A stretch of DNA of 63,688 bases from a virus. The DNA is taken from positions 1-63,688 of the IMG/VR virus record IMGVR_UViG_3300036846_000403. One strand, 5' to 3'. Below the pieces are notes generated by a model. The model ran no database searches and was not told where the DNA came from. It was given only the letters and a program-made list of their open reading frames with translations. Both the position numbers and the translations under genes were made by a program. Below, one piece after another: positions 12,326 through 60,732 of this stretch (position 1 is the first letter of the stretch; the number at the start of each line of letters is the position of its first letter).

Positions 12326-12531
12326 AGACCTACAAGGCAGTCATCGGGCCGATCGATGACATGCCATCTGACGACTATGACAGCATTCTGCTCCGCATGG
12401 AGCTGACATTCACCGTCGGCCCGCAGTCACTCAAAACGCCGTACCTCATCATCGAGGGATTCCTCAATGATAACTTTCTAGGTGACTACATGGAACTTAC
12501 CTCACTTGAGGAGGTGAAGGATGGGAAGTGA
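12310..12531 (+). CDS. Hypothetical protein (73 aa)
   Basis: GTG 12310 lies in the tail of the previous gene. A beta-rich chain (VKTYKAVIGPIDDM, LLRMELTFTVGPQSLKTPYL) with an acidic C-terminus. It overlaps the start of the glycosyltransferase-like gene, so the three genes are coupled. Function unknown. Confidence 0.65.
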   Translation: MPNQVKTYKAVIGPIDDMPSDDYDSILLRMELTFTVGPQSLKTPYLIIEGFLNDNFLGDYMELTSLEEVKDGK

Positions 12532-13360
12532 CGTCGTCTATATACCAACGTTGAGTAGGCTGGACCTGCTTGAGAGAGTCGTGCCGTTCTGGCTACAGCA
12601 AGAGATGCAAGTCCGCTTGATAGTTGAGCGCCACGAGTATGCCGCGCACCAGACACTCAAGAAAAGGATGAAGTGGGGCGGCAATGTCTACATTCTGCCG
12701 CTAAAGCTGGCTGGGCGCGGAATCGGGTACGCCCGGAGGGAGTGTGTCCTACACGCTCACGCCACGCACCTGAAGTCAGTCATCATGTCCGATGATGATA
12801 TGTACCCGCACCCCGATACCGATGTATGGGAGCTGATTGATGAAGCCGAGCGGCCAGGCGTGCTCGGCATCGGGGCAACCAGGTCACTTCACGATCGCTT
12901 CACTAACGGCGCGATCTCCCGCAACCACGGCGTGATCCTCTGCCCTGGCGGATGGGGGCTTCAGTTGTTCGGGCTCAACATCCAGGAGGCGATCAGCTGC
13001 GGCAACTTCGACCACCGCCTACACACGATAGGCGAGGATGCCGAGCTGGCCCGCCAGGGAATTGCGCGGGGTATTCCCTGGCTAGTTCACTGCGACGTCA
13101 AAGCTGTGGCAGCCGGGAAGCGCTACGCGCCGGGCGGGTTCAGCGCCAAGTACAAGCTGCTCGAAGCGCGCCGGGAAGCCGAGAAAGTGTGTATGGAGAT
13201 CATACACAGACGCTGGCCCGACTACACGAATCCACCAGAGAAGCCACTCCGGATGATGTGGCAGAAAATGCTGTCAAACTACATCCCCGAGTGGCGCGAC
13301 TACTCGGCCCTTCACGGAGGCGACATCAAGAACCTACGGAACAAGCACTTTACACCGTAA
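12521..13360 (+). CDS. GT-A-fold glycosyltransferase-like protein (279 aa)
   Basis: ATG 12521 with a GGAGG in the preceding gene. The pattern fits a GT2-like GT-A fold: an N-terminal VVYIPTLSRLDLLERVV, GRGIGYARRECVLHA, a DDD motif at residues 91-93 (IMSDDDMYPH) for metal and nucleotide-sugar binding, and TIGEDAELARQGI (about 167-179), which is like the catalytic ED motif. Known phage GT-A enzymes glycosylate DNA bases or host surface polymers; which applies here cannot be told. The C-terminal helical part is basic. Confidence in the fold is moderate; the substrate is unknown. Confidence 0.65.
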   Translation: MGSDVVYIPTLSRLDLLERVVPFWLQQEMQVRLIVERHEYAAHQTLKKRMKWGGNVYILPLKLAGRGIGYARRECVLHAHATHLKSVIMSDDDMYPHPDTDVWELIDEAERPGVLGIGATRSLHDRFTNGAISRNHGVILCPGGWGLQLFGLNIQEAISCGNFDHRLHTIGEDAELARQGIARGIPWLVHCDVKAVAAGKRYAPGGFSAKYKLLEARREAEKVCMEIIHRRWPDYTNPPEKPLRMMWQKMLSNYIPEWRDYSALHGGDIKNLRNKHFTP

Positions 13361-13471
13361 CAGATTCCTCGTCCACAGGGGAGGCCGTGAGCGAGACCTA
13401 GCGGACAGTAGGGACGGCACCCGAGGCTAAGGTGTCCACCACCGTATGTCGCGGCTAGGAGAGAGGGAACC

Positions 13472-13579
13472 ATGGATAGCGAGGCAGCTGAGAAGGCAAT
13501 CAAGGGCATGGGGATCGTATTCGTCGCAGGCGGCATCCTCATGATCATCGTGTTCGTGATAGGGATGGTGGTCCAGTAA
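13472..13579 (+). CDS. Single-span membrane miniprotein (35 aa)
   Basis: ATG 13472 after GAGAGAGGGAACC. After a short charged N-terminus (MDSEAAEKAIKG), residues 13-34 form one clean transmembrane helix (MGIVFVAGGILMIIVFVIGM). The stop overlaps the next ATG (TAATG). It may be a holin-like or membrane-associated regulator, but it is far from the lysin gene. Confidence 0.65.
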   Translation: MDSEAAEKAIKGMGIVFVAGGILMIIVFVIGMVVQ

Positions 13580-13728
13580 TGGCTAGTGTAGTTATTATCA
13601 TCACCGTCTCAGATACCGGGCACATAAAGGTCGATGTCCGCGGTCAGAGAATCAGTCAGTCAGGCATCAAGTCGGCGCTCAGTGCCGCGTCACGACTAGT
13701 AGAGCAGGGAGCATATGACCAGGAATAG
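13579..13728 (+). CDS. Tiny hypothetical protein (49 aa)
   Basis: ATG 13579 is coupled to the membrane miniprotein. A strand (SVVIIITVSDTGHIKVDV) is followed by a helix (SQSGIKSALSAASRLVEQG). The end overlaps the dCMP deaminase start by 14 nt. Function unknown. Confidence 0.6.
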   Translation: MASVVIIITVSDTGHIKVDVRGQRISQSGIKSALSAASRLVEQGAYDQE

Positions 13729-14206
13729 GGGTGAACGCCCTAACTGGGACACCTACTTCCTCGGCGTGGCGCTGGCAGTATCCGCGCGAGGCGACTGTAC
13801 CCGTAGGCTAGTCGGGGCAATCATGGTACAACCCTTCACGCACGACATCCTCTACACCGGCTATAACGGAGCACCACGGGGCGAGCCCGGCTGCCTGACC
13901 GCTGGTGCATGTCCACGTGGGCAGCACTACCTAGCGAAAACTGGCGGCCCAGTTACGTACTGCGCTTGCGGCAATACCTGGCCATGTCACCTCTCGGCCG
14001 AGTCGGGCACGGACTATGACGTCGGTAACGGGCTATGTATAGCAATCCACGCCGAAGAGAACGTCCTGCTATGTGCCGGGCGAAACGCAATAGGCAAGAT
14101 CATGTACGTCACGCACAAGCCATGCCTAATGTGTATACGCCTGATCCGTGGCGCAGGCGTTGACCGAGTAATCTGGCCAGGCGGTCAGGAGCTATTCGAC
14201 CTCTAG
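13715..14206 (+). CDS. dCMP deaminase family protein
   Basis: A cytidine/deoxycytidylate deaminase that would convert dCMP to dUMP, feeding ThyX (22543-23442). The zinc-site motifs are clear: HAEEN with H112 and the proton-shuttle E114, and PCLMC with C137 and C140. There are extra Cys/His residues at C60-C66 and the YCAC/CH region (about 83-91), as in dCMP deaminases with a second structural zinc. Length (163 aa) is normal. ATG 13715 follows CAGGGAG. Reaction assignment is from family knowledge. Confidence 0.9.
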   Translation: MTRNRGERPNWDTYFLGVALAVSARGDCTRRLVGAIMVQPFTHDILYTGYNGAPRGEPGCLTAGACPRGQHYLAKTGGPVTYCACGNTWPCHLSAESGTDYDVGNGLCIAIHAEENVLLCAGRNAIGKIMYVTHKPCLMCIRLIRGAGVDRVIWPGGQELFDL

Positions 14207-20753: not shown

Positions 20754-21517
20754 GCGTAGCCGTCCTTGGCTGCGGGCCGTCCGGACTGGCGGCGGCTCTG
20801 GCTGCCGTCAACTCCGGGCATAAGGTCCTGATAGCAAGCAACACCACCATCCCAAGTACCCAGTATGGATGCCAGTATCTTCACTCTCCCATCCCCGGCT
20901 ACCGGGACGTAGCCCACGCCACAGTAGAGTACCACCTAAACGGTACGGCCGAAGAATACCGCCTGAAGGTTTACGGGCGGAAGTGGACGGGTAGGGTATC
21001 CCCGGAAGACTTTATAGGCGAACATGAAGCCTGGGACATCCGCGAGACGTACCAGGAGATGTGGGGAGATCTTCACGAGAACGCGAGAGTTACATTTATC
21101 AAGATTCCTAAAATCAAATCTGGTATCATATCTAAGCTTGTGTATAGATTCGATCCCGCCTTCATCATCTCGACCGTACCCGCGCCAGACCTATGCTACA
21201 ACCCGGCCCATCAATTTATCTACCATAACATCTTCGCAAACGGCAGCACGAAGCCGGCAACTGAAGCCGTCAACACAGTAGTGTGCGACGGCACCCCGAT
21301 GAACGACTGGTACCGGAACGCCTGTGTGTTCGGGTACCGGACGATCGAATGGCCACACCGGCCAACGAACGGCGACGCAACAGTTTCCGTCAGGAAGCCA
21401 CTCACCACCGACTGCGACTGCTACCCGGAGTATTTCAGGATCGGCCGGTACGGCAAGTGGCAGAAGTCCTACCTAGTTCACCAGACTTATCCGGAAGTGA
21501 TGGAGATCCTTAGTTGA
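20750..21517 (+). CDS. FAD/NAD(P)-binding Rossmann oxidoreductase-like protein
   Basis: A dinucleotide-binding fold: VAVLGCGPSGLAAALAAVNS at residues 3-22 is a textbook GxGxxG beta-alpha-beta unit, followed by GHKVLIASN (the second strand). At 255 aa it is shorter than typical flavin monooxygenases, and the rest (EDFIGEHEAWDIRETYQEMW, ...TVVCDGTPMNDWYRNAC, CDCYPEYFRIGR) matches no family I know. ATG 20750 overlaps the MazG stop and its stop overlaps the HAD gene. Linkage with ThyX (an FAD enzyme) suggests a nucleotide-related redox step; that is inference. Confidence 0.7.
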   Translation: MSVAVLGCGPSGLAAALAAVNSGHKVLIASNTTIPSTQYGCQYLHSPIPGYRDVAHATVEYHLNGTAEEYRLKVYGRKWTGRVSPEDFIGEHEAWDIRETYQEMWGDLHENARVTFIKIPKIKSGIISKLVYRFDPAFIISTVPAPDLCYNPAHQFIYHNIFANGSTKPATEAVNTVVCDGTPMNDWYRNACVFGYRTIEWPHRPTNGDATVSVRKPLTTDCDCYPEYFRIGRYGKWQKSYLVHQTYPEVMEILS

Positions 21518-21552
21518 TCAGTATTAGGAATCCTTCAAGGTCACAGCCAATC

Positions 21553-22239
21553 ATGAGAGGGGTAAAGCAATTGCGTAGACGAGAGTTCCGCAGCGGCGAA
21601 GGAAAGCCAGTCGTGGCGCTCGACATCGATGGGACGCTCGGCAACTACCACGCCCACTTCCTCTGGTTCGCGGAACGCTGGCTCGGTATGCCTATGCCGT
21701 CCGAGTACGACATCAACCCCGGTCGTCGCCTTCACGAGTTCATGAACGTCCCCCACCATATCTACCGGGAATGTAAGCTAGCCTACCGGCAGGGCGGCCT
21801 GAAACGCTTCATGCCTGTGTACCCTGGCGCCGCCGAGCTAACACACAATATCCGTAATGCCGGCGCGGAAGTATGGATCTGTACGACGCGCCCGTATATG
21901 CGCCTAGACAACATCGACCCCGATACGCGGGAATGGCTCGGCCGCAATCACATCGACTACGACGCCGTGATCTTTGAAGGAGTGCCGCTCGGTGACAGGA
22001 TTACAACCAAGTATGAAGATCTGGTCCGACAAGTAGGCATAGACAGGGTTGTCGCGGCAGTCGACGACCTACCCGAGCAGACAGCGGACGCAATCAAGAA
22101 CGGCATCCGGCGCGTCTACCTCCGCGCCCAGCCATACAACCAGAGTCCCGAGGTACTAGGCGAACGCATCGACACCCTGGGCGTCCTGTGGCTGAGACTC
22201 CGCAAGGACATATCCGAATGGCAGGCAAATCACTCATGA
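21553..22239 (+). CDS. HAD-family 5'(3')-deoxyribonucleotidase-like protein
   Basis: HAD phosphatase: ALDIDGTLGNY places the catalytic DxD at residues about 24 and 26, CTTRPYMR is the motif II Thr region, and AAVDDLPEQ the motif III/IV aspartates. The order and the 228-aa length fit NT5C-like deoxynucleotidases, which dephosphorylate dUMP/dTMP. ATG 21553 was chosen; TTG 21514 (overlapping the previous stop) and TTG 21571 (better Shine-Dalgarno, GAGAGGGG) are alternatives. It lies directly before ThyX. Confidence 0.8.
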   Translation: MRGVKQLRRREFRSGEGKPVVALDIDGTLGNYHAHFLWFAERWLGMPMPSEYDINPGRRLHEFMNVPHHIYRECKLAYRQGGLKRFMPVYPGAAELTHNIRNAGAEVWICTTRPYMRLDNIDPDTREWLGRNHIDYDAVIFEGVPLGDRITTKYEDLVRQVGIDRVVAAVDDLPEQTADAIKNGIRRVYLRAQPYNQSPEVLGERIDTLGVLWLRLRKDISEWQANHS

Positions 22240-22550
22240 AGAAAACCTTTTGCGACGTAGACGGTAAGCAGTGCGTCAACACGACCGTCCTAGTACACAT
22301 ACAAGTCCATCACCACACGAAGGACGGGCAGCCCGTAGGCCAGGATTACTTCAGGCCGATCGAGGTCTGTACGGACTGTGAGACTCTTCTCAAGAGACTA
22401 TTCCCGCAGGCGTTCGTTATGGACCACAGCCGTAGCGAAGAACCGATGATTGCGGAAACTCCGGTCGCCTACGAGAACGCAGCCGCAAGGCAAAGGATAT
22501 CAAGGGAAGAATTCGAAGAGGCAATGGAAAGGCGGCACAACGGTGAGTGA
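22236..22550 (+). CDS. Small cysteine-rich protein (104 aa)
   Basis: ATG 22236 overlaps the HAD stop (ATGA). FCDVDGKQC at the N-terminus and EVCTDCETLLKRLFP in the middle give a four-cysteine zinc-ribbon-like arrangement around a beta hairpin (TTVLVHIQVHHHTKDG). The C-terminal third is a charged helix. The stop overlaps the ThyX start. Function unknown. Confidence 0.75.
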   Translation: MKKTFCDVDGKQCVNTTVLVHIQVHHHTKDGQPVGQDYFRPIEVCTDCETLLKRLFPQAFVMDHSRSEEPMIAETPVAYENAAARQRISREEFEEAMERRHNGE

Positions 22551-23442
22551 CGACGACAAGAGCAGGCTACCCGCTCGATGGGCTGACGTAGCGATGTACT
22601 CGGCCCCTCCGCTTGTAGAACCAGGCGACAAGGTAACACCGCGGGTGTCCCTGGTATCCATGACGCGGAATCCCCTTCGCGTTATGGCCGCTGCCGCCGA
22701 GACGTACCAGGGAGGTGTCTACCGCGACCCGAGTACCGTAACCCACGATCAGTGTATGAAGTGGCTTAACGGCTTCAAGGACAGCGCCATCACCGCACCG
22801 CTGGAGTTCGTCAGTCTTCACTTCTACTTTGAAGGCGTGACGCGGGCCTTCACTCACCAGCTTGTCCGGCAGCGCACCGCGACATTCGTACAGGAGTCGA
22901 TGCGGTTCGCCGTCAAGGAGAATGCCGCCTGGGAGGTGGCCGACCCGCCCAGCCTGGAAGGACTGAAGGATGACCATCCCTGGCGCCTAACCTGGGACGC
23001 TGCGACCTCCTACGCGGCGCAGGCATACAACCGGCTAGTCGCCAACGGTATGCCGGCCGAAGACGCACGCGGGCTCCTGCCGACGAACATCACGACGCGA
23101 GTCCACTACCACACCGACCTCCTCAACCTTACCCGGCAGGCCGGGAACCGGCTCTGCTCTCAGGCTCAGCACGAGTGGAAGGTTGTCTGGAACCAGATGA
23201 TCCTCGCCATCCTCAACTACGGCTCAACCGACGAGAGGTGGCAGCAGAAGGAGATCGTCAAGCTGTTCAAGCCGGTCTGCTACCAGAAGGGCAGTTGTGG
23301 CTTCCACGGCCCGGCCGACCGCTGGTGCGTTATCCGTGACCGGGTTGATGCCCACGCCGCTGCCGGCGATCACCCAGACACCTGGACTGACATCAACCCG
23401 CGCGAGCCCCTCAGCGCCGCAGCCGCTAGGAAGCCGAAGTGA
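22543..23442 (+). CDS. thyX: Flavin-dependent thymidylate synthase ThyX
   Basis: ThyX converts dUMP to dTMP using FAD, NADPH and methylene-tetrahydrofolate. The signature RHRx7S is present as RQRTATFVQES (R109, R111, S119), with His replaced by Gln, followed by MRF. Other family features are THQLVRQR, the TRVHYHTDLLNL block and R-x-C-SQAQHEW. GTG 22543 overlaps the previous stop and follows GGAAAGGCGG; 299 aa is slightly long. The C-terminal extension has cysteines (KPVCYQKGSCGFHGPADRWC) not typical of ThyX, perhaps a metal site. It works with the dCMP deaminase upstream. Confidence 0.95.
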   Translation: MSDDDKSRLPARWADVAMYSAPPLVEPGDKVTPRVSLVSMTRNPLRVMAAAAETYQGGVYRDPSTVTHDQCMKWLNGFKDSAITAPLEFVSLHFYFEGVTRAFTHQLVRQRTATFVQESMRFAVKENAAWEVADPPSLEGLKDDHPWRLTWDAATSYAAQAYNRLVANGMPAEDARGLLPTNITTRVHYHTDLLNLTRQAGNRLCSQAQHEWKVVWNQMILAILNYGSTDERWQQKEIVKLFKPVCYQKGSCGFHGPADRWCVIRDRVDAHAAAGDHPDTWTDINPREPLSAAAARKPK

Positions 23443-25685: not shown

Positions 25686-26615
25686 ATGAGGTACGTCAGC
25701 CTTCACCACCACAGCACCTTCAGTCACGGTGATGGGCACAAGCCTCCCGCAATTCACGTAGCCCGCGCCGCAGAACTTGGATACACCGCTATGGCTCTGA
25801 CCGAGCACGGCGGCACGAGCAGCCATTTCCAATTCGAGCAAGCAGCTATCAAGGCCGGGGTAAAGCCTCTCTTTGGGCTTGAAGCCTACACCGGCCCGGT
25901 CGACGCGAACCGGAGTCAATGGAAGTACCATCTCACGATCCTCGCCGGGAGTAATGATGGATACCGAAACCTCAATCAACTGGTCACCCAGTCTTGGCGC
26001 GATCATCACTACCATCCAACAGTTTCTGGAGAGAATCTCCAGCGCAATTCTGGAGATCTGTACATACTTTCTGGATGCACTGGATCGATGCTTGCCTGCG
26101 CTCTTGTGGGAGGTAAGGGGATTCCAGAACCTACCTCGCGCGACGGATATGGATGGGATGACGCAAGACGCATCATCAGCCGTTTTTCCCGACTATCGGG
26201 AGAACGTTATTTTCTTGAAGTCCAGCCCTTCTGGGAACTTGAGAAAACCTGTCGAATCAACCCAGCTTATGAACGCCTATCAAGGGAAACTGGCGTGCCA
26301 CTTGTCGCAACCTGTGACGTACACTACCCTAGACCCGACGACTCTGAGATGCAGGCTATCCTACACGCAGTACATCGAGGCAATCAATCGATCGATGATG
26401 CGATGAGGGCGTGGAACTATTCGGTACCAATGACGCTTCCGACTTCGGATAAGGAACTAGGCGAGCGCCTGATTAAAACTGGCCTGTCGCGGAACGCTGC
26501 CTGGGAAGCTATCCTTAACACGGAGTGGATAGCTAGCCAGTGTAACGTAACCCTGCCGAAAGCCGAGCGCCTAGTGTACCCGATTGAGGAAGGTGACTGG
26601 AAGCCGTGGACCTAG
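25686..26615 (+). CDS. DNA polymerase III alpha, PHP-domain half
   Basis: A 309-aa protein matching only the N-terminal PHP domain of DnaE. HHHSTFSHGDG at residues 7-17, LTEHGG and ATCDVHYP supply the metal-binding motifs that, in DnaE-type polymerases, give or descend from a Zn-dependent 3'-5' exonuclease. The chain ends at the linker where DnaE would continue into the catalytic palm. ATG 25686 follows AATAGGAGT. The motifs are intact, so this half could be an active proofreading nuclease. The polymerase half is encoded separately at 26787, so the holoenzyme is presumably reassembled from two chains. Confidence 0.85.
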   Translation: MRYVSLHHHSTFSHGDGHKPPAIHVARAAELGYTAMALTEHGGTSSHFQFEQAAIKAGVKPLFGLEAYTGPVDANRSQWKYHLTILAGSNDGYRNLNQLVTQSWRDHHYHPTVSGENLQRNSGDLYILSGCTGSMLACALVGGKGIPEPTSRDGYGWDDARRIISRFSRLSGERYFLEVQPFWELEKTCRINPAYERLSRETGVPLVATCDVHYPRPDDSEMQAILHAVHRGNQSIDDAMRAWNYSVPMTLPTSDKELGERLIKTGLSRNAAWEAILNTEWIASQCNVTLPKAERLVYPIEEGDWKPWT

Positions 26616-26803
26616 CTAAGTGTAAGTGTACGGCGTTCTGGGTACCGTGCGTGCGCCTAGCGACGCAGGAGGATATGCTCTGTGACGAATGCCGAGAAAA
26701 TACCTGCTGTGTAATCGAGCTGCCTGAACAAGATCCTGTACACGCACATATTATAAAACTTGATCCACGACACACTTGGAGGATCGGTGAACCGGGACTC
26801 TGA
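26606..26803 (+). CDS. Cys-rich small protein bridging the split polymerase (65 aa)
   Basis: GTG 26606 overlaps the end of the PHP gene by 10 nt, and its 3' end overlaps the catalytic-half gene by 17 nt. CKCTAFWVPC ... LCDECRENTCC gives seven Cys in the first 36 residues, a probable zinc-binding unit; the rest is a short beta/turn segment. GAGGAAGGTG lies 10 nt upstream. Its position exactly at the break between PHP and palm suggests a structural link or assembly role. That is inference. Confidence 0.65.
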   Translation: MDLAKCKCTAFWVPCVRLATQEDMLCDECRENTCCVIELPEQDPVHAHIIKLDPRHTWRIGEPGL

Positions 26804-29039
26804 ACAACTACTTTGGCAGTGGGTCCGCTACGGCTGGAACTACCGCAAGATCAACCAGCTCCCGCGCGCCGAGATAGACTGGTACGTCGAGCGCATCAAG
26901 TATGAAATGGACCTTATCCTGAAGCGCGGACTTGCTGACTTCTTCTTGTTTACCTCGGATACTATCAGATGGGGCAAGGATCACGGCATTCCATTCGGGC
27001 CGGGGCGTGGAAGCACCGCGGCCAGCGTGGTTGCCTACCTCCTACGGATTACCGAGATTCCCCCGCACAAGTACAAGGGCATGATCTTCGAGCGCTTCAT
27101 TGACATCTCCCGGCCCGACCCGCCCGACATCGACGTCGATGCCTCTGATGAGGACCGCTGGCGTGTGTGGGAGTACCTGGAGGGGAAGTATGGCGCGGAT
27201 AAGGTCGGCCATATCGGGAACTTTGTCCGGTACCGTGGGAAGAACTCGCTGGCTGACGTAACGAAAGTTTACAACATCCCGATCTATGCGCGAGAGACAG
27301 TAGCCAATCTACTGATAGAACGTTCCGGTGGAGACTCCCGGTTTAGCTCTACTCTGGCCGACACATTCGATCTCTTCCCTGAAGCACAGAAGGTACGCGA
27401 CGAGTACCCGGACATAGCCAGGGCCTGCCGTCTCGAAGGGGACGTGCGCGGGATGTCCGTCCACGCGGCCGGGCTCGTGATAGCGAATAGCCCGCTTACC
27501 GATATCTGCGCCGTGTACGAGCGCGACGGCGTTAAGGTAATGTCGATCGACAAGTATGACGTCGAGTACGCCGGTGCCCTGAAGCTTGACTTCCTTGGTC
27601 TCTCGACTATGGGGATGATTGCCCGGTGTCTCCGGATGGCCGGCCTAACCCTGGAGGATCTATATGCGGTTCCTGACGATGACCCTGAAACTATCGAGGT
27701 ATTCCGGAAGAGTGATGTCGTTGGAGTCTTTCAGTTTGAGGGTCGCGCTACACGGCTCGTCAACCGAGACGTCCATCCAGATCACTTCATGCATATCTCA
27801 GACATCAATGCTCTGTCGCGTCCTGGACCACTATTTTCCGGACAGACGGCCGCATACGTGGATGTCCGTCACGGACGCAAAAAAGCTGAAAGGCTACATC
27901 CGCTCGTGGATGAAGTCACCCTTGAGACTTATGGGCAGATCATCTACCAGGAACAGATCCTCCGAATCCTCAAGGAGATCGGTGGATTCGACTGGTTCTC
28001 TGTTAGCCAGATCCGGCGGATTATCTCGAAGAAAATGGGCGAGGCTGCCTTCCAGATGTCGTATCAGCAGTTCGCGGACGGGGCGAAGTCCCTCCACGGT
28101 ATCCCCGCCGAGACTGCTGATAAGATCTGGCGCCGCCTCGTGACGTCCGGAACCTACAGCTTTAATATCGCGCACTCGATCTCGTACTCGATGCTTGCCT
28201 TCTGGACGGCATTCCTGAAGATACACTACCCAGTCGAGTTCTACGCGGCCAGCCTAGCGAAAGCCACGAATGCCGATTCACAGTTCAGGCTTATGCGCGA
28301 TGCCCTTGCTCACTCGGTCGACGTAAAGCCACCGTCCCTCACACACTCCCGCGCCACCTGGCGTCCGGTTCCCGGCATCGGCCTAGTCGCTGGCTGGCAG
28401 TCAATCCCGAAGGTAGGCGAGAAGACTGCCTTGCGTATCGAGGCGCTAGCCGGTGACTACGGATTCGATGACTGGATCGAACTCCGCGCCATCCCAGGGA
28501 TAGGTGATAAGACTATCGCCCGTATGGAAGAGTGGACCCTGGCGCGGGACCCATTCGGACTGTACCGGACGGAGAAGCGCCTGGCCGCTGTTCTCCGGTT
28601 CCTCAAGCATCAAGGGAAAGGAGCCGCGCCAATCCCTACGCACGACGGCGACAAGCTTTCCGGAATGAAGGTGAAACAGCGTCAGCCGGGTCAGAGATGG
28701 GTACCGGGTCCGCGCGTCGTCTATATGGGGATGGTAGGTAAGGTCGAGTATAAGGACATTGTGGAAGACGAGAGGTCCCGAACCGGCAAGGAAGTAGAAG
28801 AGATCCTGAAGGAGCTGAAGCGCCCGGATCTCGTGAAGCGGGCTACTCTTCACTGCTTCGATAACAGTAATGAGGAAGTCTACGCGCGGGTGAATAGATG
28901 GCAGTTCCCGCGCCTACAGAAACAGCTAGCACAGATACACCCGAATCACGACGTCGTGGTTATCCTCGGGAACCGCATCGCCGGATTCGGTACGCCGGTA
29001 ACCGTCGAGAGAATATGGATCTTTGATCCCGACAACTAA
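26787..29039 (+). CDS. dnaE: DNA polymerase III alpha, catalytic half
   Basis: A C-family DNA polymerase lacking the PHP domain: 750 aa from GTG 26787 (GGAGGA 4 nt upstream; TTG 26760 is an alternative). It starts with NRDSEQLLWQWVRYG, the segment that follows PHP in DnaE. GRGSTAASVVAYLL (about 74-87) is the palm signature, PDIDVD (D114, D116, D118) carries catalytic aspartates, LKLDFLGL the third. FNIAHSISYSMLAFWTAFLK matches the end of the palm/fingers. A tandem helix-hairpin-helix (IPKVGEKTA, IPGIGDKTI) and a C-terminal OB-like domain follow. This is the phage replicative polymerase. Confidence 0.93.
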   Translation: MNRDSEQLLWQWVRYGWNYRKINQLPRAEIDWYVERIKYEMDLILKRGLADFFLFTSDTIRWGKDHGIPFGPGRGSTAASVVAYLLRITEIPPHKYKGMIFERFIDISRPDPPDIDVDASDEDRWRVWEYLEGKYGADKVGHIGNFVRYRGKNSLADVTKVYNIPIYARETVANLLIERSGGDSRFSSTLADTFDLFPEAQKVRDEYPDIARACRLEGDVRGMSVHAAGLVIANSPLTDICAVYERDGVKVMSIDKYDVEYAGALKLDFLGLSTMGMIARCLRMAGLTLEDLYAVPDDDPETIEVFRKSDVVGVFQFEGRATRLVNRDVHPDHFMHISDINALSRPGPLFSGQTAAYVDVRHGRKKAERLHPLVDEVTLETYGQIIYQEQILRILKEIGGFDWFSVSQIRRIISKKMGEAAFQMSYQQFADGAKSLHGIPAETADKIWRRLVTSGTYSFNIAHSISYSMLAFWTAFLKIHYPVEFYAASLAKATNADSQFRLMRDALAHSVDVKPPSLTHSRATWRPVPGIGLVAGWQSIPKVGEKTALRIEALAGDYGFDDWIELRAIPGIGDKTIARMEEWTLARDPFGLYRTEKRLAAVLRFLKHQGKGAAPIPTHDGDKLSGMKVKQRQPGQRWVPGPRVVYMGMVGKVEYKDIVEDERSRTGKEVEEILKELKRPDLVKRATLHCFDNSNEEVYARVNRWQFPRLQKQLAQIHPNHDVVVILGNRIAGFGTPVTVERIWIFDPDN

Positions 29040-29637: not shown

Positions 29638-30249
29638 CTATCCGGGGTACCCGACTGGTGTTGGGACTAGCGGGTCGTATGGCTCCTGCCGCCTAATCAT
29701 TGCGTCGTAGACGCCGGTCTTGAAAGCTGGCTTTCGCCATACACCGCGGAATGGCGCTCGGTAGAAGCACGGCCAGGAATACGGCTTGTTGGAAGTCCAG
29801 CACATCATGAGCACCGAACCGTGCCGCATCGCTTCCTGAACCGAAGCCTCGAATGCCGACTCGGCTTCATCAGTCTTGAATGGCCGGCCGATGTACACGA
29901 TGTCGTATTCGGACCAGTTCGGATGTTCCTCGCGGAAGTCCATGTACCGCGCATCAACTCCGAGCGCGGCTGCCTTCTCCAGGTAGTCATGCGAGATCTC
30001 GAAGCCGACGGCTTCCATGTCAAAGTACCTTTCCGCCAGGTACAGCTTCGTGCCAATGCCGCAGCCTGCCTCACAGAACTTCAGGTTGCGGAGTCCCTTG
30101 AATAGCTGCCGGGCGATCGTAAGCATATGATCAAACTCGGTCAGCTCTAGCGGGCTCCACCGCCACATCTCCGGATCAGGGTCCGTCGTCTCACGCTCGT
30201 GCGTAACCTGCTCTAGTTCCATTCGCCATAGTTCTTGCTTCGATATCAC
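29638..30249 (-). CDS. Class I SAM-dependent methyltransferase-like protein (203 aa)
   Basis: GTG 30249 with CTGGAGG upstream; the first 59 nt overlap the cytosine methylase gene. FCEAGCGIGTKLYLAERYF (about 56-74) is the SAM-binding motif I; the following acidic residue in AVGFEISHD and YDIVYIGRPF (motif IV region) fit class I methyltransferases. The substrate could be DNA, a nucleotide or a small molecule. It is the last gene of the late transcript, paired with a C5-methylase. Confidence 0.75.
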   Translation of the reverse strand: MISKQELWRMELEQVTHERETTDPDPEMWRWSPLELTEFDHMLTIARQLFKGLRNLKFCEAGCGIGTKLYLAERYFDMEAVGFEISHDYLEKAAALGVDARYMDFREEHPNWSEYDIVYIGRPFKTDEAESAFEASVQEAMRHGSVLMMCWTSNKPYSWPCFYRAPFRGVWRKPAFKTGVYDAMIRRQEPYDPLVPTPVGYPG

Positions 30250-30952
30250 GACGCCTCCAGGCTCTCATGAACATCCTCATTTGCTTGCCTAGGTAGAACG
30301 TATATGCCGGCGGGATCGCCTGGGAAAGCTCAGCGATATTCATCCAGTCGATACCCATAGCGGTTCGCCAGATTTCTAGCTGCTTCATGTTCTCGAAATG
30401 GGAACCGTCGCCTCCGCCATATACGTTGATTACTCCGGCATACCTCTCACTTCCCGGCCCATTGCTGACCACTAGGTACGGCTGATGCCTATCCTGCCAT
30501 TCATGCCGGCATGTCGTCCCGGTAAGGGGCATGTTCGACTCAAAGAACCTATGACGCCTCACCCGTAGCGCGAGCGCCGACCCGCACACCATCACCGGGT
30601 CGATAAGCGGAGCACCCGGCACATTCTCAATAATATACGGCAGCCCGGTCGCCTTAGCAATCGCGCGGGCTGTCGGGATAAGGTCTTCGTGATTCAGCTT
30701 GTATCGCTTCGGCGTTAGTATTGAGTGTACCTTACAGGGCGGGCTGAACGCTACGGCATCATAGTCCCGCGCGATCCGGGATATCTGCTTGTCGGTTATG
30801 TCCTTGATATTGTCCTGGTAGAACTGAAACGGGTAATGCGGCTGGGGCTCGATATCGACGCCACAGACATCGAATCCGGCCATATGGTATCCCATAGAGG
30901 TACCTCCAGCCTTACAGCAGAAATCGATGAGGCGCGGGAGATGGCCCGTCAC
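30191..30952 (-). CDS. DNA cytosine-5 methyltransferase
   Basis: GTG 30952 overlaps the stop of the preceding gene (TAGTG). The order of C5-methylase motifs is clear: DFCCKAGGTSMGYHMAGF (motif I), VDIEPQPHYPF (II), FSPPCKVHS with the catalytic C73 (IV), IIENVPGAPL with E109 (VI), and RRHRFFESN (VIII). The target-recognition region is short and the chain is 253 aa, so it is a compact phage Dcm-type enzyme. Likely role: methylation of phage DNA against host restriction. Confidence 0.88.
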   Translation of the reverse strand: MTGHLPRLIDFCCKAGGTSMGYHMAGFDVCGVDIEPQPHYPFQFYQDNIKDITDKQISRIARDYDAVAFSPPCKVHSILTPKRYKLNHEDLIPTARAIAKATGLPYIIENVPGAPLIDPVMVCGSALALRVRRHRFFESNMPLTGTTCRHEWQDRHQPYLVVSNGPGSERYAGVINVYGGGDGSHFENMKQLEIWRTAMGIDWMNIAELSQAIPPAYTFYLGKQMRMFMRAWRRRDIEARTMANGTRAGYARA

Positions 30953-31125
30953 TAGTGCTTCAAGGCTTCTATGTGATCCGGGAGTTTCTGGTTTGGCACC
31001 AGAGCGAAGCACCACGGGCATACGGTCACCCGGAGTGTACCATCCTGCTGAAGAACCCCGGCCAGGAACTCCCCGACATCCTGCGTGTCGATGATCATCC
31101 TGACCGGGACATCGATTGTAGACAT
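30952..31125 (-). CDS. Small C2H2-like protein (57 aa)
   Basis: ATG 31125 with GTGAGGAT upstream; stop coupled to the methylase start. The C-terminal CPWCFALVPNQKLPDHIEAL plus KH gives C-x2-C ... H-x5-H, a classic small finger; the N-terminal part is a beta-alpha unit (IDVPVRMIIDTQDVGEFL). It may guide or regulate the methylase; that is inference from coupling. Confidence 0.7.
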   Translation of the reverse strand: MSTIDVPVRMIIDTQDVGEFLAGVLQQDGTLRVTVCPWCFALVPNQKLPDHIEALKH

Positions 31126-57013: not shown

Positions 57014-58128
57014 ATCTGGCTCTGAAGCGCAAATACTTTACTATTCCTTCCCGAAGGTTTTGATACAATATCGCCACTCCTTTCCGCTGCGGATATTACC
57101 TTGGCTCTGAATCCTGATTGCCCATCTATGTACTCTTTCAGGGAAGTGGTGTTGAGGTTCCATGGGCCGGCCTGCTCGATTGCGTTCACTACCTGTTCAA
57201 TTCCATGCTCCATTTTGTCGTATTCACGGCCCTTTGAATCACTTACTACGTGAAGCGTTCCCGTATTGTACTCGTAGTCTAGAGTTAGCTCCGGCCACAG
57301 AGATATACCACGGCCAAAAGCTGAGATATACCGGCGCGAATCAGGTGGTATTTCGCCTATATCACCGCTATGCCGGTACCCGATATTGGCATCAGAGTTC
57401 CCTAGAATGGAGCTAGCGCCCCGTGCTCTCGGCATACCGTCCGTCTGCCCCATTACCGGATGTCCTGCGTGGTGAAGGATGAGCGTAGCTCGGACCCTAG
57501 CTTCTGCTACGATCATTTCAAGTTGTCGGAACCACCTATTGAATTCGGCCGGGTCATTCTCCTCATCAAGCATCCGGCCGAGTGGGTCTATTGTCCATTG
57601 CTCGATATCACGCTCCACGAGCCACTTAACTGTCCATTCAGCTATGTTGTCCTGTATGAAATCCATACGCTTCCCGCGTAGATGTGATGTGAAGATCCGG
57701 TTCGCACCTTTCTTGACCCTGCGATCCTGCCATTCAAACATCTGCGGCTCATCAACCTCAAGATTCCAGTACCCAACATTCCCGCCAATATCATCAACTT
57801 CAAAATAACGCAAGAAATTAGAATGTGAAGCTAGACAAGCTGCCAAGTCTATTCCCAACGTAGTCTTACCGGCCTTGAATTGTGCCGCCATGACCGAGAT
57901 TCCCTCTGGAAGGAACCCGTCGACGACATGACGTACCGGAGTTGGGGGATCTTCTCGTGCTTCTTGTAGTGAACTCCCCGGATCAGGCTCGATCCATGAT
58001 TCGTTATCGACCAAGCGCCTTGCGTCACGCCTGACGCGAATATTATGAGCCTCTTCTCTTACTGATTTGTAGAAGTTGCCGGTCATATCCGTGCTGCCGC
58101 GAAGGCCATTGCCGTTCAGACTATTCAT
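57001..58128 (-). CDS. RepA/AAA_25-type replicative helicase-like ATPase (375 aa)
   Basis: ATG 58128 overlaps the primase stop (ATGA). Walker A AAQFKAGKTT at residues 81-90, Walker B QWTIDPLGRM in mid-chain, LILHHAGHPVMGQTDGMPRA and SSILGNSDANIGYRH as sensor regions. The last 80 residues (HGIEQVVNAIEQAGPWNLNT, KVISAAERSGDIVSKPSGRN) look like a winged-helix. A hexameric helicase partner of the upstream prim-pol; phage and plasmid replication modules commonly pair these. The stop lies in the origin-like repeats. Confidence 0.85.
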   Translation of the reverse strand: MNSLNGNGLRGSTDMTGNFYKSVREEAHNIRVRRDARRLVDNESWIEPDPGSSLQEAREDPPTPVRHVVDGFLPEGISVMAAQFKAGKTTLGIDLAACLASHSNFLRYFEVDDIGGNVGYWNLEVDEPQMFEWQDRRVKKGANRIFTSHLRGKRMDFIQDNIAEWTVKWLVERDIEQWTIDPLGRMLDEENDPAEFNRWFRQLEMIVAEARVRATLILHHAGHPVMGQTDGMPRARGASSILGNSDANIGYRHSGDIGEIPPDSRRYISAFGRGISLWPELTLDYEYNTGTLHVVSDSKGREYDKMEHGIEQVVNAIEQAGPWNLNTTSLKEYIDGQSGFRAKVISAAERSGDIVSKPSGRNSKVFALQSQMGRS

Positions 58129-59180
58129 GACATCTTCCTCCAGTCACCTTTGCCTTCGCGCGGGATATTACGCATACCGCATACGTCTATCTCTTCTTGC
58201 TTGCCTGTTGCGGCGCGGGCCATAGCTGTGTTTACCACATCGGTCCATTCACGCCCAAGATTCCTACGACGTCGGGCATGGATGATTTCTTCCTCAATCA
58301 AATGCAAGGCCATATCAAGTCCTGTGTGTCCTTCCGAAGCATTACGACAGAGATGGGTAACAGCAACACACATAGCATCATGAAGACCGCCAAAATCGGC
58401 AGCGAGCCTTACATTGTTCCTTTGCTTTACCGACATCGCCCTCATATACTTACACATTTCACCATGACCAATTCCGGCATACCATGAAGCAACATTTTCC
58501 AGTTGCACTTTGTCAGTCACGGTAAATTCGCGTTCCGACAAAAGAAAATCGCGCCATTCAACTGGAAGTTTTGTCAATGCGGTGATTATTGGTGGCTTGA
58601 CTAGTTTATCGCCATACCACCAGCGGTACTGACGCCCGGTAGTGTTGTGAATCGACGGCGCGACCGTAGCGAAGCGGTGATGCCATTGCGCGATCTCTAC
58701 GCCAGAGCCCGGCCCGAGGTCGGTTAGCCAAACTTGATTGTTTTCGCGATGTGAGTAGTACAGGTAGATTCCGGAAACTTTGTCCTCGGGCGCACGAGAT
58801 GTAGAACGCCAGGTTGGCGGAAGGTTACATCCAATCATTTTTGCTATCTCGTTTATTGTCTTGGCGCCTGCCCGGCCGTCGTAGGCGTCTACGTCGATGC
58901 CGATAACGTCCCATGGCAGACGAATCCCTATATTGGCGGTAGGGAACTCATCGATGAATGCAAGCAGTTCCTCGTCGGTTGCGTCGATTCCGTTGTGCCC
59001 TGTGACGCCTTTGGCGAGCGGGGCCTTCGTTCCCCAGCGAGTAACAGGGATTGTTCCCTGCCAGCCGATCGAGCGGTAATAGGCCGCTGCCTGACGGAAT
59101 GGGAAGTGCTTGACGCCCCGTTTAGGGCTGTTCGTATTTAGGGCTTTACTTTCCCGGCCGCGTCCGGTATACTCGTTCAT
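58125..59180 (-). CDS. Bifunctional DNA primase/polymerase (prim-pol, 351 aa)
   Basis: ATG 59180 with GGAGGGAG. Prim-pol features: VIGIDVDAYDG (D96, D98), GIYLYYSHRE, GSGVEIAQWHHRFATVAPSI (His/Gln-rich nucleotide site), RQYRWWYGDK. The C-terminal part is helical (MALHLIEEEIIHARRRRNLG, EWTDVVNTAMARA). It would make primers and possibly DNA at the origin, with the helicase downstream. A class A promoter and a palindrome control it. Confidence 0.9.
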   Translation of the reverse strand: MNEYTGRGRESKALNTNSPKRGVKHFPFRQAAAYYRSIGWQGTIPVTRWGTKAPLAKGVTGHNGIDATDEELLAFIDEFPTANIGIRLPWDVIGIDVDAYDGRAGAKTINEIAKMIGCNLPPTWRSTSRAPEDKVSGIYLYYSHRENNQVWLTDLGPGSGVEIAQWHHRFATVAPSIHNTTGRQYRWWYGDKLVKPPIITALTKLPVEWRDFLLSEREFTVTDKVQLENVASWYAGIGHGEMCKYMRAMSVKQRNNVRLAADFGGLHDAMCVAVTHLCRNASEGHTGLDMALHLIEEEIIHARRRRNLGREWTDVVNTAMARAATGKQEEIDVCGMRNIPREGKGDWRKMS

Positions 59181-59245
59181 AGATGGCTCCCTCCGCCATC
59201 GCCACGGCGGGCCGGACCCCCTCTTCAAGTGCCCGGCCCGCCATC

Positions 59246-59272
59246 TAACATACATTGGTAACCTGTATGTTA
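59246..59272. promoter_or_regulatory. Palindromic operator-like site in the primase leader
   Basis: TAACATACA (59246-59254) and TGTATGTTA (59264-59272) are perfect inverted arms around a 9-bp centre that contains GGTAACC. It lies just downstream of the primase promoter's -10, the classic place for repression. The HNH-XRE protein encoded next door is the natural candidate binder (inference). Confidence 0.6.
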
Positions 59273-59289
59273 ACGTTTAGGAAACTCTA

Positions 59290-59318
59290 AGTATACGCCG
59301 GGTAACGGCCGAAGTCTA
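59290..59318 (-). promoter_or_regulatory. Class A promoter of the primase/helicase operon
   Basis: Minus strand: -35 TAGACT (59318-59313), 17-nt spacer, -10 TATACT (59295-59290). The start site is expected near 59283, with a leader of about 100 nt that contains the palindrome. Confidence 0.72.
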
Positions 59319-59358
59319 CTGCATCATGCTGGATTTCTCTCCTAGCGAACGCTGTTTT

Positions 59359-59991
59359 TTACTCAAGGTCGAGAACGTCGGCCAGCTCGATACCAAGGGC
59401 ATCAGTCAGGGCCTGTAGGTTGCGTGGGCGCGGGACCTTCACTCCATTCATCCAGTCGCTGACAGTCTTGGCCGATACACCAGTGGCGTTGGCCAGCTCC
59501 CGCACGCCAAGCCCAGACATCTCCTGGATAGTCCGCAGTTTGTCCGGGCTGAAGATCTTGTTGTGGTTATTCTGGCCGTTCGCCCGTACCTCGGACGCAT
59601 TACGTGTATACAGTCCCAGCATAGACCGCACCTCGGCCTCGGGCTGGGTCCATGTTATTCGCCGGTTAGCAGCGACCACCTCCGGCTTCTGCCATTCGAG
59701 GTTCCAGTAGTTGTTGTTGGCGCGGTTGTGATCTATGTGTACCGCCTGGTACCTGATGCCGTCCGCCGGGAATGGCCCGTTGAAATGCCAGCAGACAATC
59801 CGGGCAACCCTGATCATCTTGTGGCGCCCGTTCGGGTCGAGCACAGCAACTCTGATGTGCCCGCGCTCGTTTACCTGTGGGCTGAGTTCCTCGCCCCGCC
59901 GGCCAACAATACGGCCGTCGTCACTGACGTAGTATCCCTGGTACCACGGCAGCATTTCCTCCCAGCGTACCTTCGGGTGTTTCCTTGGCAT
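59359..59991 (-). CDS. NUMOD4-HNH endonuclease fused to an XRE-type HTH (210 aa)
   Basis: ATG 59991 with AAAGGAGG. Three parts: a NUMOD4-like start (WEEMLPWYQGYYVSDDGRIV, GRRGEELSPQVNERGHIRVA), an HNH core (HIDHNRANNNYWNLEW, about 85-101, preceded by IVCWHFNGPFPADG), and at about 145-208 a Cro/C1-type helix-turn-helix (IQEMSGLGVRELANATGVSA then KTVSDWMNGVKVPRPRNLQA). Homing-type HNH proteins usually end in short DNA-binding modules; a full XRE domain is unusual and resembles a phage repressor. It may be a nuclease, a regulator or both. Confidence 0.85.
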   Translation of the reverse strand: MPRKHPKVRWEEMLPWYQGYYVSDDGRIVGRRGEELSPQVNERGHIRVAVLDPNGRHKMIRVARIVCWHFNGPFPADGIRYQAVHIDHNRANNNYWNLEWQKPEVVAANRRITWTQPEAEVRSMLGLYTRNASEVRANGQNNHNKIFSPDKLRTIQEMSGLGVRELANATGVSAKTVSDWMNGVKVPRPRNLQALTDALGIELADVLDLE

Positions 59992-60011
59992 GTAGCCTCC
60001 TTTCCTACCCT

Positions 60012-60040
60012 AGTATATACCCCCGGAGGCGGATAGGGAA
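60012..60040 (-). promoter_or_regulatory. Class B promoter of the HNH-XRE gene
   Basis: Minus strand: -35 TTCCCT (60040-60035), 17-nt spacer, -10 TATACT (60017-60012), 20 nt before the ATG. It is divergent from the promoter at 60062-60090; the 21 bp between the two -35 boxes are AT-rich (AATTAAAATT). Confidence 0.72.
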
Positions 60041-60061
60041 CTCAGCAATTAAAATTCCCTC

Positions 60062-60090
60062 TTCCCTTTTCCCGGCCGGTAAGGTAGACT
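60062..60090 (+). promoter_or_regulatory. Class B promoter of the resolvase gene
   Basis: -35 TTCCCT (60062-60067; an extra TTCCCT lies at 60055-60060), 17-nt spacer, -10 TAGACT (60085-60090). Divergent partner of 60012-60040, so one AT-rich centre could control both. Confidence 0.68.
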
Positions 60091-60189: not shown

Positions 60190-60732
60190 ATGCCGCCAAG
60201 AAACATACACGTCATGGGGATCGACCCCGGTGCGACAACCGGATGGTACAACATAACCATTCCCCGGCTGTGTATATTTGGTGATGAGGAAGCTAAGATC
60301 CTTGAAGTTGACTACGGAGAGTTCACCGGCGACGAGGCACACCAGGCCGTCGAGCTAGCCCGCCTGGCGCGGGAGATCCAGAGCATGGACTACAAGTACG
60401 GCCCGGCGCTGATCGTTGAAGCCTGGGATGTAGACCCGACATTCAAATCCACGGACCAGGAAGTGCTCAGCCCTGTCCGGATCGGGGCCATGCTCACCCT
60501 CTTGAAGCACCAGCGACAGCTTGGTGACTGTACACTTCACTTTCAGTCCCGCGCCCTCGCATTCGGCACAGCTACCGATGAGCGCCTACAGAAATGGAAG
60601 CTCTGGGTTAAGGGCTCGGACCACATCAGGGCCGCATCCCGCCATGCCATAGTGGCTCTTCGCAGGGCCAGGGAAAACCCTGAATTCGCCCGTGAATTGT
60701 GGCCGGGAGACCCCTATTATCCAGACTTTTAG
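60190..60732 (+). CDS. RuvC-like Holliday junction resolvase (180 aa)
   Basis: ATG 60190 follows a very purine-rich GGGAGGGAGGGGAC; an upstream in-frame ATG (60094) would sit at the promoter's start site and lacks such a signal. RuvC fold: GIDPGATTGWY with D12, LIVEAWD with E77, and SDHIRAASRHAIVALR with D144/H145, the expected acidic triad plus. It would cut branched DNA before packaging. Leader about 95 nt. Confidence 0.85.
   Translation: MPPRNIHVMGIDPGATTGWYNITIPRLCIFGDEEAKILEVDYGEFTGDEAHQAVELARLAREIQSMDYKYGPALIVEAWDVDPTFKSTDQEVLSPVRIGAMLTLLKHQRQLGDCTLHFQSRALAFGTATDERLQKWKLWVKGSDHIRAASRHAIVALRRARENPEFARELWPGDPYYPDF

What the first reader, a model, noticed from the sequence alone, without database searches (positions are those of the whole stretch)
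59246..59991. HNH nuclease fused to an XRE repressor domain, beside its likely operator
A NUMOD4-HNH core continues into a full Cro/C1-like domain. The gene has its own class B promoter, divergent from the resolvase promoter across an AT-rich centre, and the primase leader next door has a 9-bp-arm palindrome at its start site. A homing nuclease recruited as a replication regulator would be new; a nuclease that is held at operator sites is also possible.
Basis: partly seen in the sequence, partly recalled or inferred. Interest (0 to 1): 0.76.

Follow-up and report, generated by a model that had tools for sequence, protein, structure and literature searches.

The report
Dead homing nuclease carrying repressor domain
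In a group of related bacterial viruses, a gene that looks like a DNA-cutting selfish gene has apparently lost its cutting chemistry but kept its shape, gained a repressor-type DNA-binding end, and been preserved by selection between two replication genes, so it probably now grips DNA rather than cutting it.

Summary
The fusion is real. The 210-aa gene (59359-59991, minus) has an HNH_3 core closest to I-HmuI and a complete five-helix XRE domain. The metal-binding Asn (W+6, I-HmuI N96) is present in 21 of 22 homologs but is Val here, and the residue before the catalytic His is Val.

Two phages of the same group carry full-length orthologs (about 40% identity, XRE included) in the same place and orientation between primase and resolvase. 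Both also lack the Asn (Lys, Arg) and put Trp before the His. That pair has dN/dS about 0.17, so intact, apparently non-cutting proteins are under selection. The gene is patchy (3 of 14 loci) and the carriers are not a clade.

The class B promoters are real. The palindrome 59246-59272 is real but is not supported as this protein's operator: it is absent beside both orthologs, its half-site occurs in two phages without the gene, and it folds into a structured primase leader. No shared operator was found.

Most likely this is a domesticated, nuclease-dead homing-endonuclease relative acting as a DNA-binding regulator; its target is unknown. Homing nucleases acting as repressors have precedents (I-TevI; CapR).

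The parts
59359..59991 (-). HNH-XRE gene, 210 aa
   Evidence: (coding-like codon-position GC in both halves)
59692..59970 (-). NUMOD4/HNH-like core, residues 8-100; 54-59% identical to the two orthologs
59737..59742 (-). V84-H85: general-base His kept, preceding residue (I-HmuI D74 position) is Val; Trp in both orthologs
59674..59676 (-). V106 at the position of the metal-binding Asn (I-HmuI N96; W+6); Asn in 21 of 22 homologs, Lys and Arg in the orthologs
59368..59547 (-). Cro/C1 (XRE) domain, residues 149-208, five helices
60012..60040 (-). Predicted HNH-XRE promoter TTCCCT-N17-TATACT
60062..60090 (+). Predicted resolvase promoter TTCCCT-N17-TAGACT; TTCCCT region conserved in most relatives
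59290..59318 (-). Predicted primase promoter TAGACT-N17-TATACT; -10 conserved in relatives
59246..59272 (-). TAACATACA-N9-TGTATGTTA inverted repeat in the primase leader; unique to this genome among the loci fetched
59206..59242 (-). G+C-rich leader hairpin, conserved in relatives with paired changes
58125..59180 (-). Prim-Pol primase-like gene
60190..60732 (+).

Best explanation
A nuclease-dead relative of phage HNH homing endonucleases that has been kept as a DNA-binding protein. Steps shown by sequence: an I-HmuI-like HNH scaffold joined to a complete XRE domain; loss of the conserved metal-binding Asn and of any plausible ligand just before the catalytic His in all three orthologs; same site and orientation in three phages; purifying selection on the pair where it can be measured; own phage-type promoter divergent from the resolvase promoter. 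Inferred: it cannot cut DNA; the XRE domain supplies sequence-specific binding and the HNH scaffold adds further DNA contacts, as the N-terminal half of I-HmuI does; once bound it blocks or tunes transcription, most simply at the divergent HNH-XRE/resolvase/primase promoters beside it. The target site is not identified.
For: Fold and fusion: HNH core mean pLDDT about 92, XRE about 90; I-HmuI 1u3e E 2e-7; XRE repressors next. Dead centre: W+6 is Asn in 21 of 22 homologs, Gln in one, Val here; Lys and Arg in L042 and L047, which also have Trp before the His and a shortened segment after the Trp of NLEW; the HNH_3 match stops before that column in all three. In SpCas9, D839-H840-N863 is the catalytic triad, and N863A or D839A strongly impairs editing (PMC6706240). 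Maintained: orthologs in L042 and L047 between primase and resolvase, same orientation; L042 vs L047 dN 0.17, dS 1.00, with both domains constrained; the three form a clade, 97/85. Own promoter. Precedents for homing nucleases or their DNA-binding parts as repressors.
Against: No binding site was identified: no shared half-site palindrome among the three carriers, and the window palindrome is not conserved. Patchy distribution, with at least two changes forced on neighbour-gene trees, is also what selfish genes show. dS is near 1 or saturated, and the ratio comes from one pair only. Inactivity is inferred from sequence; the general-base His and D87 remain. The closest relatives of the window phage (L013-L015, 82-83% in the resolvase) manage without the gene.
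Confidence: 0.5

Rival explanations
1. An ordinary free-standing homing endonuclease gene, or its decaying remains, with no role for the phage; the XRE part is just its target-recognition HTH.
For: Related HNH enzymes carry a C-terminal HTH in the same register; 10 relatives with both neighbours lack the gene; carriers are not a clade in neighbour trees; other homing-type genes sit in a relative (L018) at the resolvase and terminase starts.
Against: All three orthologs are intact yet lack the catalytic Asn; L042-L047 dN/dS about 0.17 over the whole protein; a decaying gene should drift.
Confidence: 0.25
2. A still active nuclease with a non-canonical centre.
For: His85, D87, N92, N93, N97 and W100 are invariant in the three orthologs; the residue before the His varies in other homologs too.
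Against: No conserved candidate ligand after W100; the catalytic-helix and linker segment is only 5-21% identical to the orthologs; Trp fills the D74 position in two orthologs.
Confidence: 0.1
3. A shield or competitor: it occupies the target site of active homing endonucleases or of a rival phage, protecting this region from invasion or silencing the rival.
For: The region is a homing-gene hot spot (L018 insertion at resolvase codon 13); a related HNH gene of the normal type sits at the terminase start of the L018 phage. Odn shows HEG nucleases being re-targeted against a competitor (PMC10448857).
Against: No target shown; no co-occurrence pattern could be tested with three carriers.
Confidence: 0.1
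4. The palindrome 59246-59272 is the XRE operator controlling the primase, as the first reader proposed (a sub-hypothesis of the regulator reading).
For: Exact 9-bp arms, close to the primase promoter, unlikely by chance locally.
Against: Absent beside both orthologs; ACATACA present in L017 and L018, which lack the gene; no copy at the gene's own promoter; total span of 27 bp exceeds usual XRE dimer operators of about 14-18 bp (established knowledge); it also forms an RNA hairpin in a strongly folded leader (z -4.7).
Confidence: 0.08

Closest known systems
I-HmuI (PDB 1u3e), HNH homing endonuclease of phage SPO1
   Same: NUMOD4-like N-terminus, HNH scaffold, C-terminal DNA-binding half; best sequence and fold match
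   Different: D74 and N96 positions are Val and Val; C-terminal domain is a full five-helix XRE; free-standing between genes, not in an intron
NUMOD4-HNH-HTH genes of actinophages (Streptomyces phage Samy WNA15395, Arthrobacter phage Wollypog gp58, Streptomyces phage Ibantik gp17)
   Same: Same N-terminal architecture, next to replication genes; Samy and Wollypog 25-33% identical
   Different: They keep the W+6 Asn and have a shorter C-terminal HTH
I-TevI of phage T4
   Same: Homing endonuclease whose DNA-binding domain also represses its own promoter (PMC2988022)
   Different: GIY-YIG enzyme, catalytically active, binds a homing-site-like operator
CapR and Odn (PLE satellites / phage ICP1)
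   Same: Homing-endonuclease-derived proteins reused as repressor (CapR) or re-targeted nuclease (Odn) (PMC10448857)
   Different: T5orf172 lineage with zinc-finger or RepA_N domains, not HNH with XRE

Membership tests
HNH homing endonuclease (I-HmuI type, HNH_3) | HNH_3 profile match | tested here: met
   25.7 bits vs cut-off 24.8, columns 5-38 of 46 only
HNH homing endonuclease (I-HmuI type, HNH_3) | NUMOD4 motif | tested here: inconclusive
   13.0 bits vs cut-off 23.4
HNH homing endonuclease (I-HmuI type, HNH_3) | General-base His | tested here: met
   H85, aligned with I-HmuI H75
HNH homing endonuclease (I-HmuI type, HNH_3) | Metal-binding Asn/His in the catalytic helix | tested here: not met
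   V106 here, Lys and Arg in orthologs; Asn in 21 of 22 homologs
HNH homing endonuclease (I-HmuI type, HNH_3) | DNA nicking and homing | not testable with these tools
   needs purified protein and mixed infection
HNH homing endonuclease (I-HmuI type, HNH_3) | Patchy presence at one site with empty sites in relatives | tested here: met
   3 of 14 loci, empty sites in L013, L015, L016, L017 and others
XRE / Cro-C1 repressor | HTH_3/HTH_31/HTH_26 domain above cut-off with five-helix fold | tested here: met
XRE / Cro-C1 repressor | Conserved palindromic operator near its own or a divergent promoter | tested here: not met
   no half-site palindrome shared by the three carriers; window palindrome not conserved
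XRE / Cro-C1 repressor | Dimerisation and DNA binding | not testable with these tools
   needs purified protein
I-TevI-like autorepressing homing endonuclease | Operator resembling the homing site over its own promoter | tested here: inconclusive
   no candidate repeat at 59992-60060; homing site unknown

The most novel reading that the evidence does not exclude
A family of nuclease-dead HNH homing-endonuclease derivatives that acquired an XRE repressor domain and serve the phage as a sequence-specific regulator (or homing-site shield) at the junction of its divergent replication genes.
Probability: 0.45. Interest if true: 0.7.

Novelty: new variant of a known kind. Interest (0 to 1): 0.55.

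Why it matters
Domestication of homing endonucleases into regulators is known from a few cases (I-TevI autorepression, CapR). Here the steps can be compared directly: related HNH genes with the normal active site, empty sites in sister phages, and three intact orthologs that share loss of the catalytic centre plus an XRE domain. It makes the change from cutter to binder testable by binding and nicking assays on a handful of proteins, and may reveal how these phages time primase and resolvase expression or resist homing elements.

Tried and rejected
Palindrome as conserved operator: rejected on comparison with L042, L047 and 10 gene-free loci. Shared operator search (k-mers; half-sites of 5-6 with spacers 0-12) gave only promoter elements and the leader hairpin. 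Duplication of flanks by insertion of the window gene: only short chance matches. Homologs in cellular genomes (two scans) and plasmids: none. A seven-member phage alignment was too diverse to scan with. The primase as a single-sequence query found no kin; the resolvase did. Paper searches for NUMOD4/HNH-XRE fusions gave no relevant description in the titles and abstracts returned; those papers were not read in full.

Full report
What is there. The window is a 63.7-kb virus contig with a structural-gene arm (terminase, portal, major head protein, tail) and a replication arm. Gene 59359-59991 (-) encodes 210 aa. Pfam finds HNH_3 at residues 64-100 and Cro/C1 domains at 151-210, above curated cut-offs; NUMOD4 is below. 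I-HmuI is the top solved relative by sequence and by fold. The second model, made with the orthologs in the alignment, has mean pLDDT 82, with the HNH core and the XRE domain both near 90 and a poorly defined stretch between about 113 and 142.

Is the fusion odd? Partly ordinary. Related phage HNH enzymes also end in a helix-turn-helix in the same register, and I-HmuI itself is a catalytic half plus a DNA-binding half (PMC3428280). What differs is that here the C-terminal part is a complete XRE domain.

The active site. Aligned without gaps from the catalytic His to the NLxW motif, the protein keeps His85, D87, N92, N93 and W100. The residue at W+6, the metal-ligand Asn of this fold (I-HmuI N96 by alignment; N863 in SpCas9, PMC6706240), is Val. 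Of 22 homologs, 21 have Asn and one Gln. The position before the His is variable in the family (Asn, Asp, Ala, Arg, Cys), so the Val there is weaker evidence by itself. Pfam agrees: the other homologs tested match HNH_3 through column 44-46, this protein stops at 38.

Orthologs. Scans with the resolvase and its alignment gave 13 loci of the same phage group. Ten have the same primase and resolvase neighbours without the gene, several with a roughly 300-bp intergenic stretch that aligns to the window flanks; one more (L019/L048) has a different primase. Two, L042 (IMGVR_UViG_3300036832_001674) and L047 (IMGVR_UViG_3300036832_001236), carry full-length orthologs in the same place and orientation. 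HNH-core identity to the window is 54-59% and XRE identity 34-37%, while the segment that should hold the catalytic helix is 5-21% identical. Both have Trp before the His and Lys or Arg at W+6, with about five residues fewer after the Trp. Between L042 and L047 dN is 0.17 and dS 1.00, both domains being constrained (NG86, rough because dS is high). The three form a clade among HNH homologs (97/85), but the phages that carry them are not a clade in primase or resolvase trees, so the gene has been gained or lost more than once. A further scan with the three orthologs found no other member.

Promoters and palindrome. The gene's promoter and the divergent resolvase promoter share TTCCCT with a TATACT or TAGACT -10; the class is real (4 in the window, 0.1 expected). 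The primase has its own conserved promoter downstream of the gene (59318-59290). The palindrome is exact and locally unlikely by chance, but it lies beyond the primase -10, in a leader that folds far better than shuffles (z -4.7) next to a G+C-rich hairpin conserved with paired changes in relatives. It is missing from both other carriers, and its ACATACA half-site occurs in L017 and L018, which lack the gene. I therefore separate it from this protein.

Mechanism. I commit to a nuclease-dead DNA-binding regulator (0.5). Shown: architecture, loss of ligands, synteny, constraint, own promoter. Inferred: lack of cutting, specific binding by the XRE part, regulation of nearby promoters. Rivals: selfish or decaying homing gene (0.25), unusual active nuclease (0.1), shield against homing elements or a competitor (0.1).

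Known or new. Repression by homing endonucleases is known (I-TevI, PMC2988022), and reuse of their parts as a repressor or re-targeted nuclease is known (CapR, Odn, PMC10448857). I found no description of an HNH-XRE protein with a lost catalytic centre, within an open-access library and capped searches. I rate it a new variant of a known kind.

Noticed in passing
L018 3453-3990 and L020 1438-2077 (both from IMGVR_UViG_3300036828_001309): Two homing-type insertions lie inside the first codons of the resolvase and of the terminase, and each is followed by a synonymously recoded copy of the interrupted 5' end (30/39 nt identical with the same peptide after the start codon; 65/84 nt with 27/28 residues). 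This looks like a natural home-and-rescue arrangement: target destroyed, gene restored.
   Followed up: partly
59206-59242 and the same leader in L013-L018, L042, L047: The primase leader carries a G+C-rich hairpin kept by paired G-C to A-U changes at two positions, plus a small hairpin that puts the Shine-Dalgarno GGAGG in its loop; similar inverted repeats precede the genes at 60190 and 60922.
   Followed up: partly
59181-59330, and the same stretch in L013-L018, L039, L042-L047: Short GTTACC / GTTTACC / GTTAACC words recur around the primase promoter in nearly all relatives, with or without the HNH-XRE gene; possible binding sites of another regulator.
   Followed up: no
25686-26615 and 26760-29039: DNA polymerase is split over two ORFs (PHROG 405 columns 42-327 and 334-1053) with about 145 bp between them.
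   Followed up: no
12521-14206, 21514-23442, 30191-31021: Nucleotide-modification set: HMC-glucosyltransferase-like, dCMP deaminase, thymidylate-synthase-like, polynucleotide-kinase-like and DNA methyltransferase genes; the phage DNA may be modified.
   Followed up: no
L014 3801-3992 and L042 2802-2996: A small gene (MTKGEL..., about 64 aa) sits between the resolvase leader hairpin and the resolvase in two phages, another insertion at this junction.
   Followed up: no
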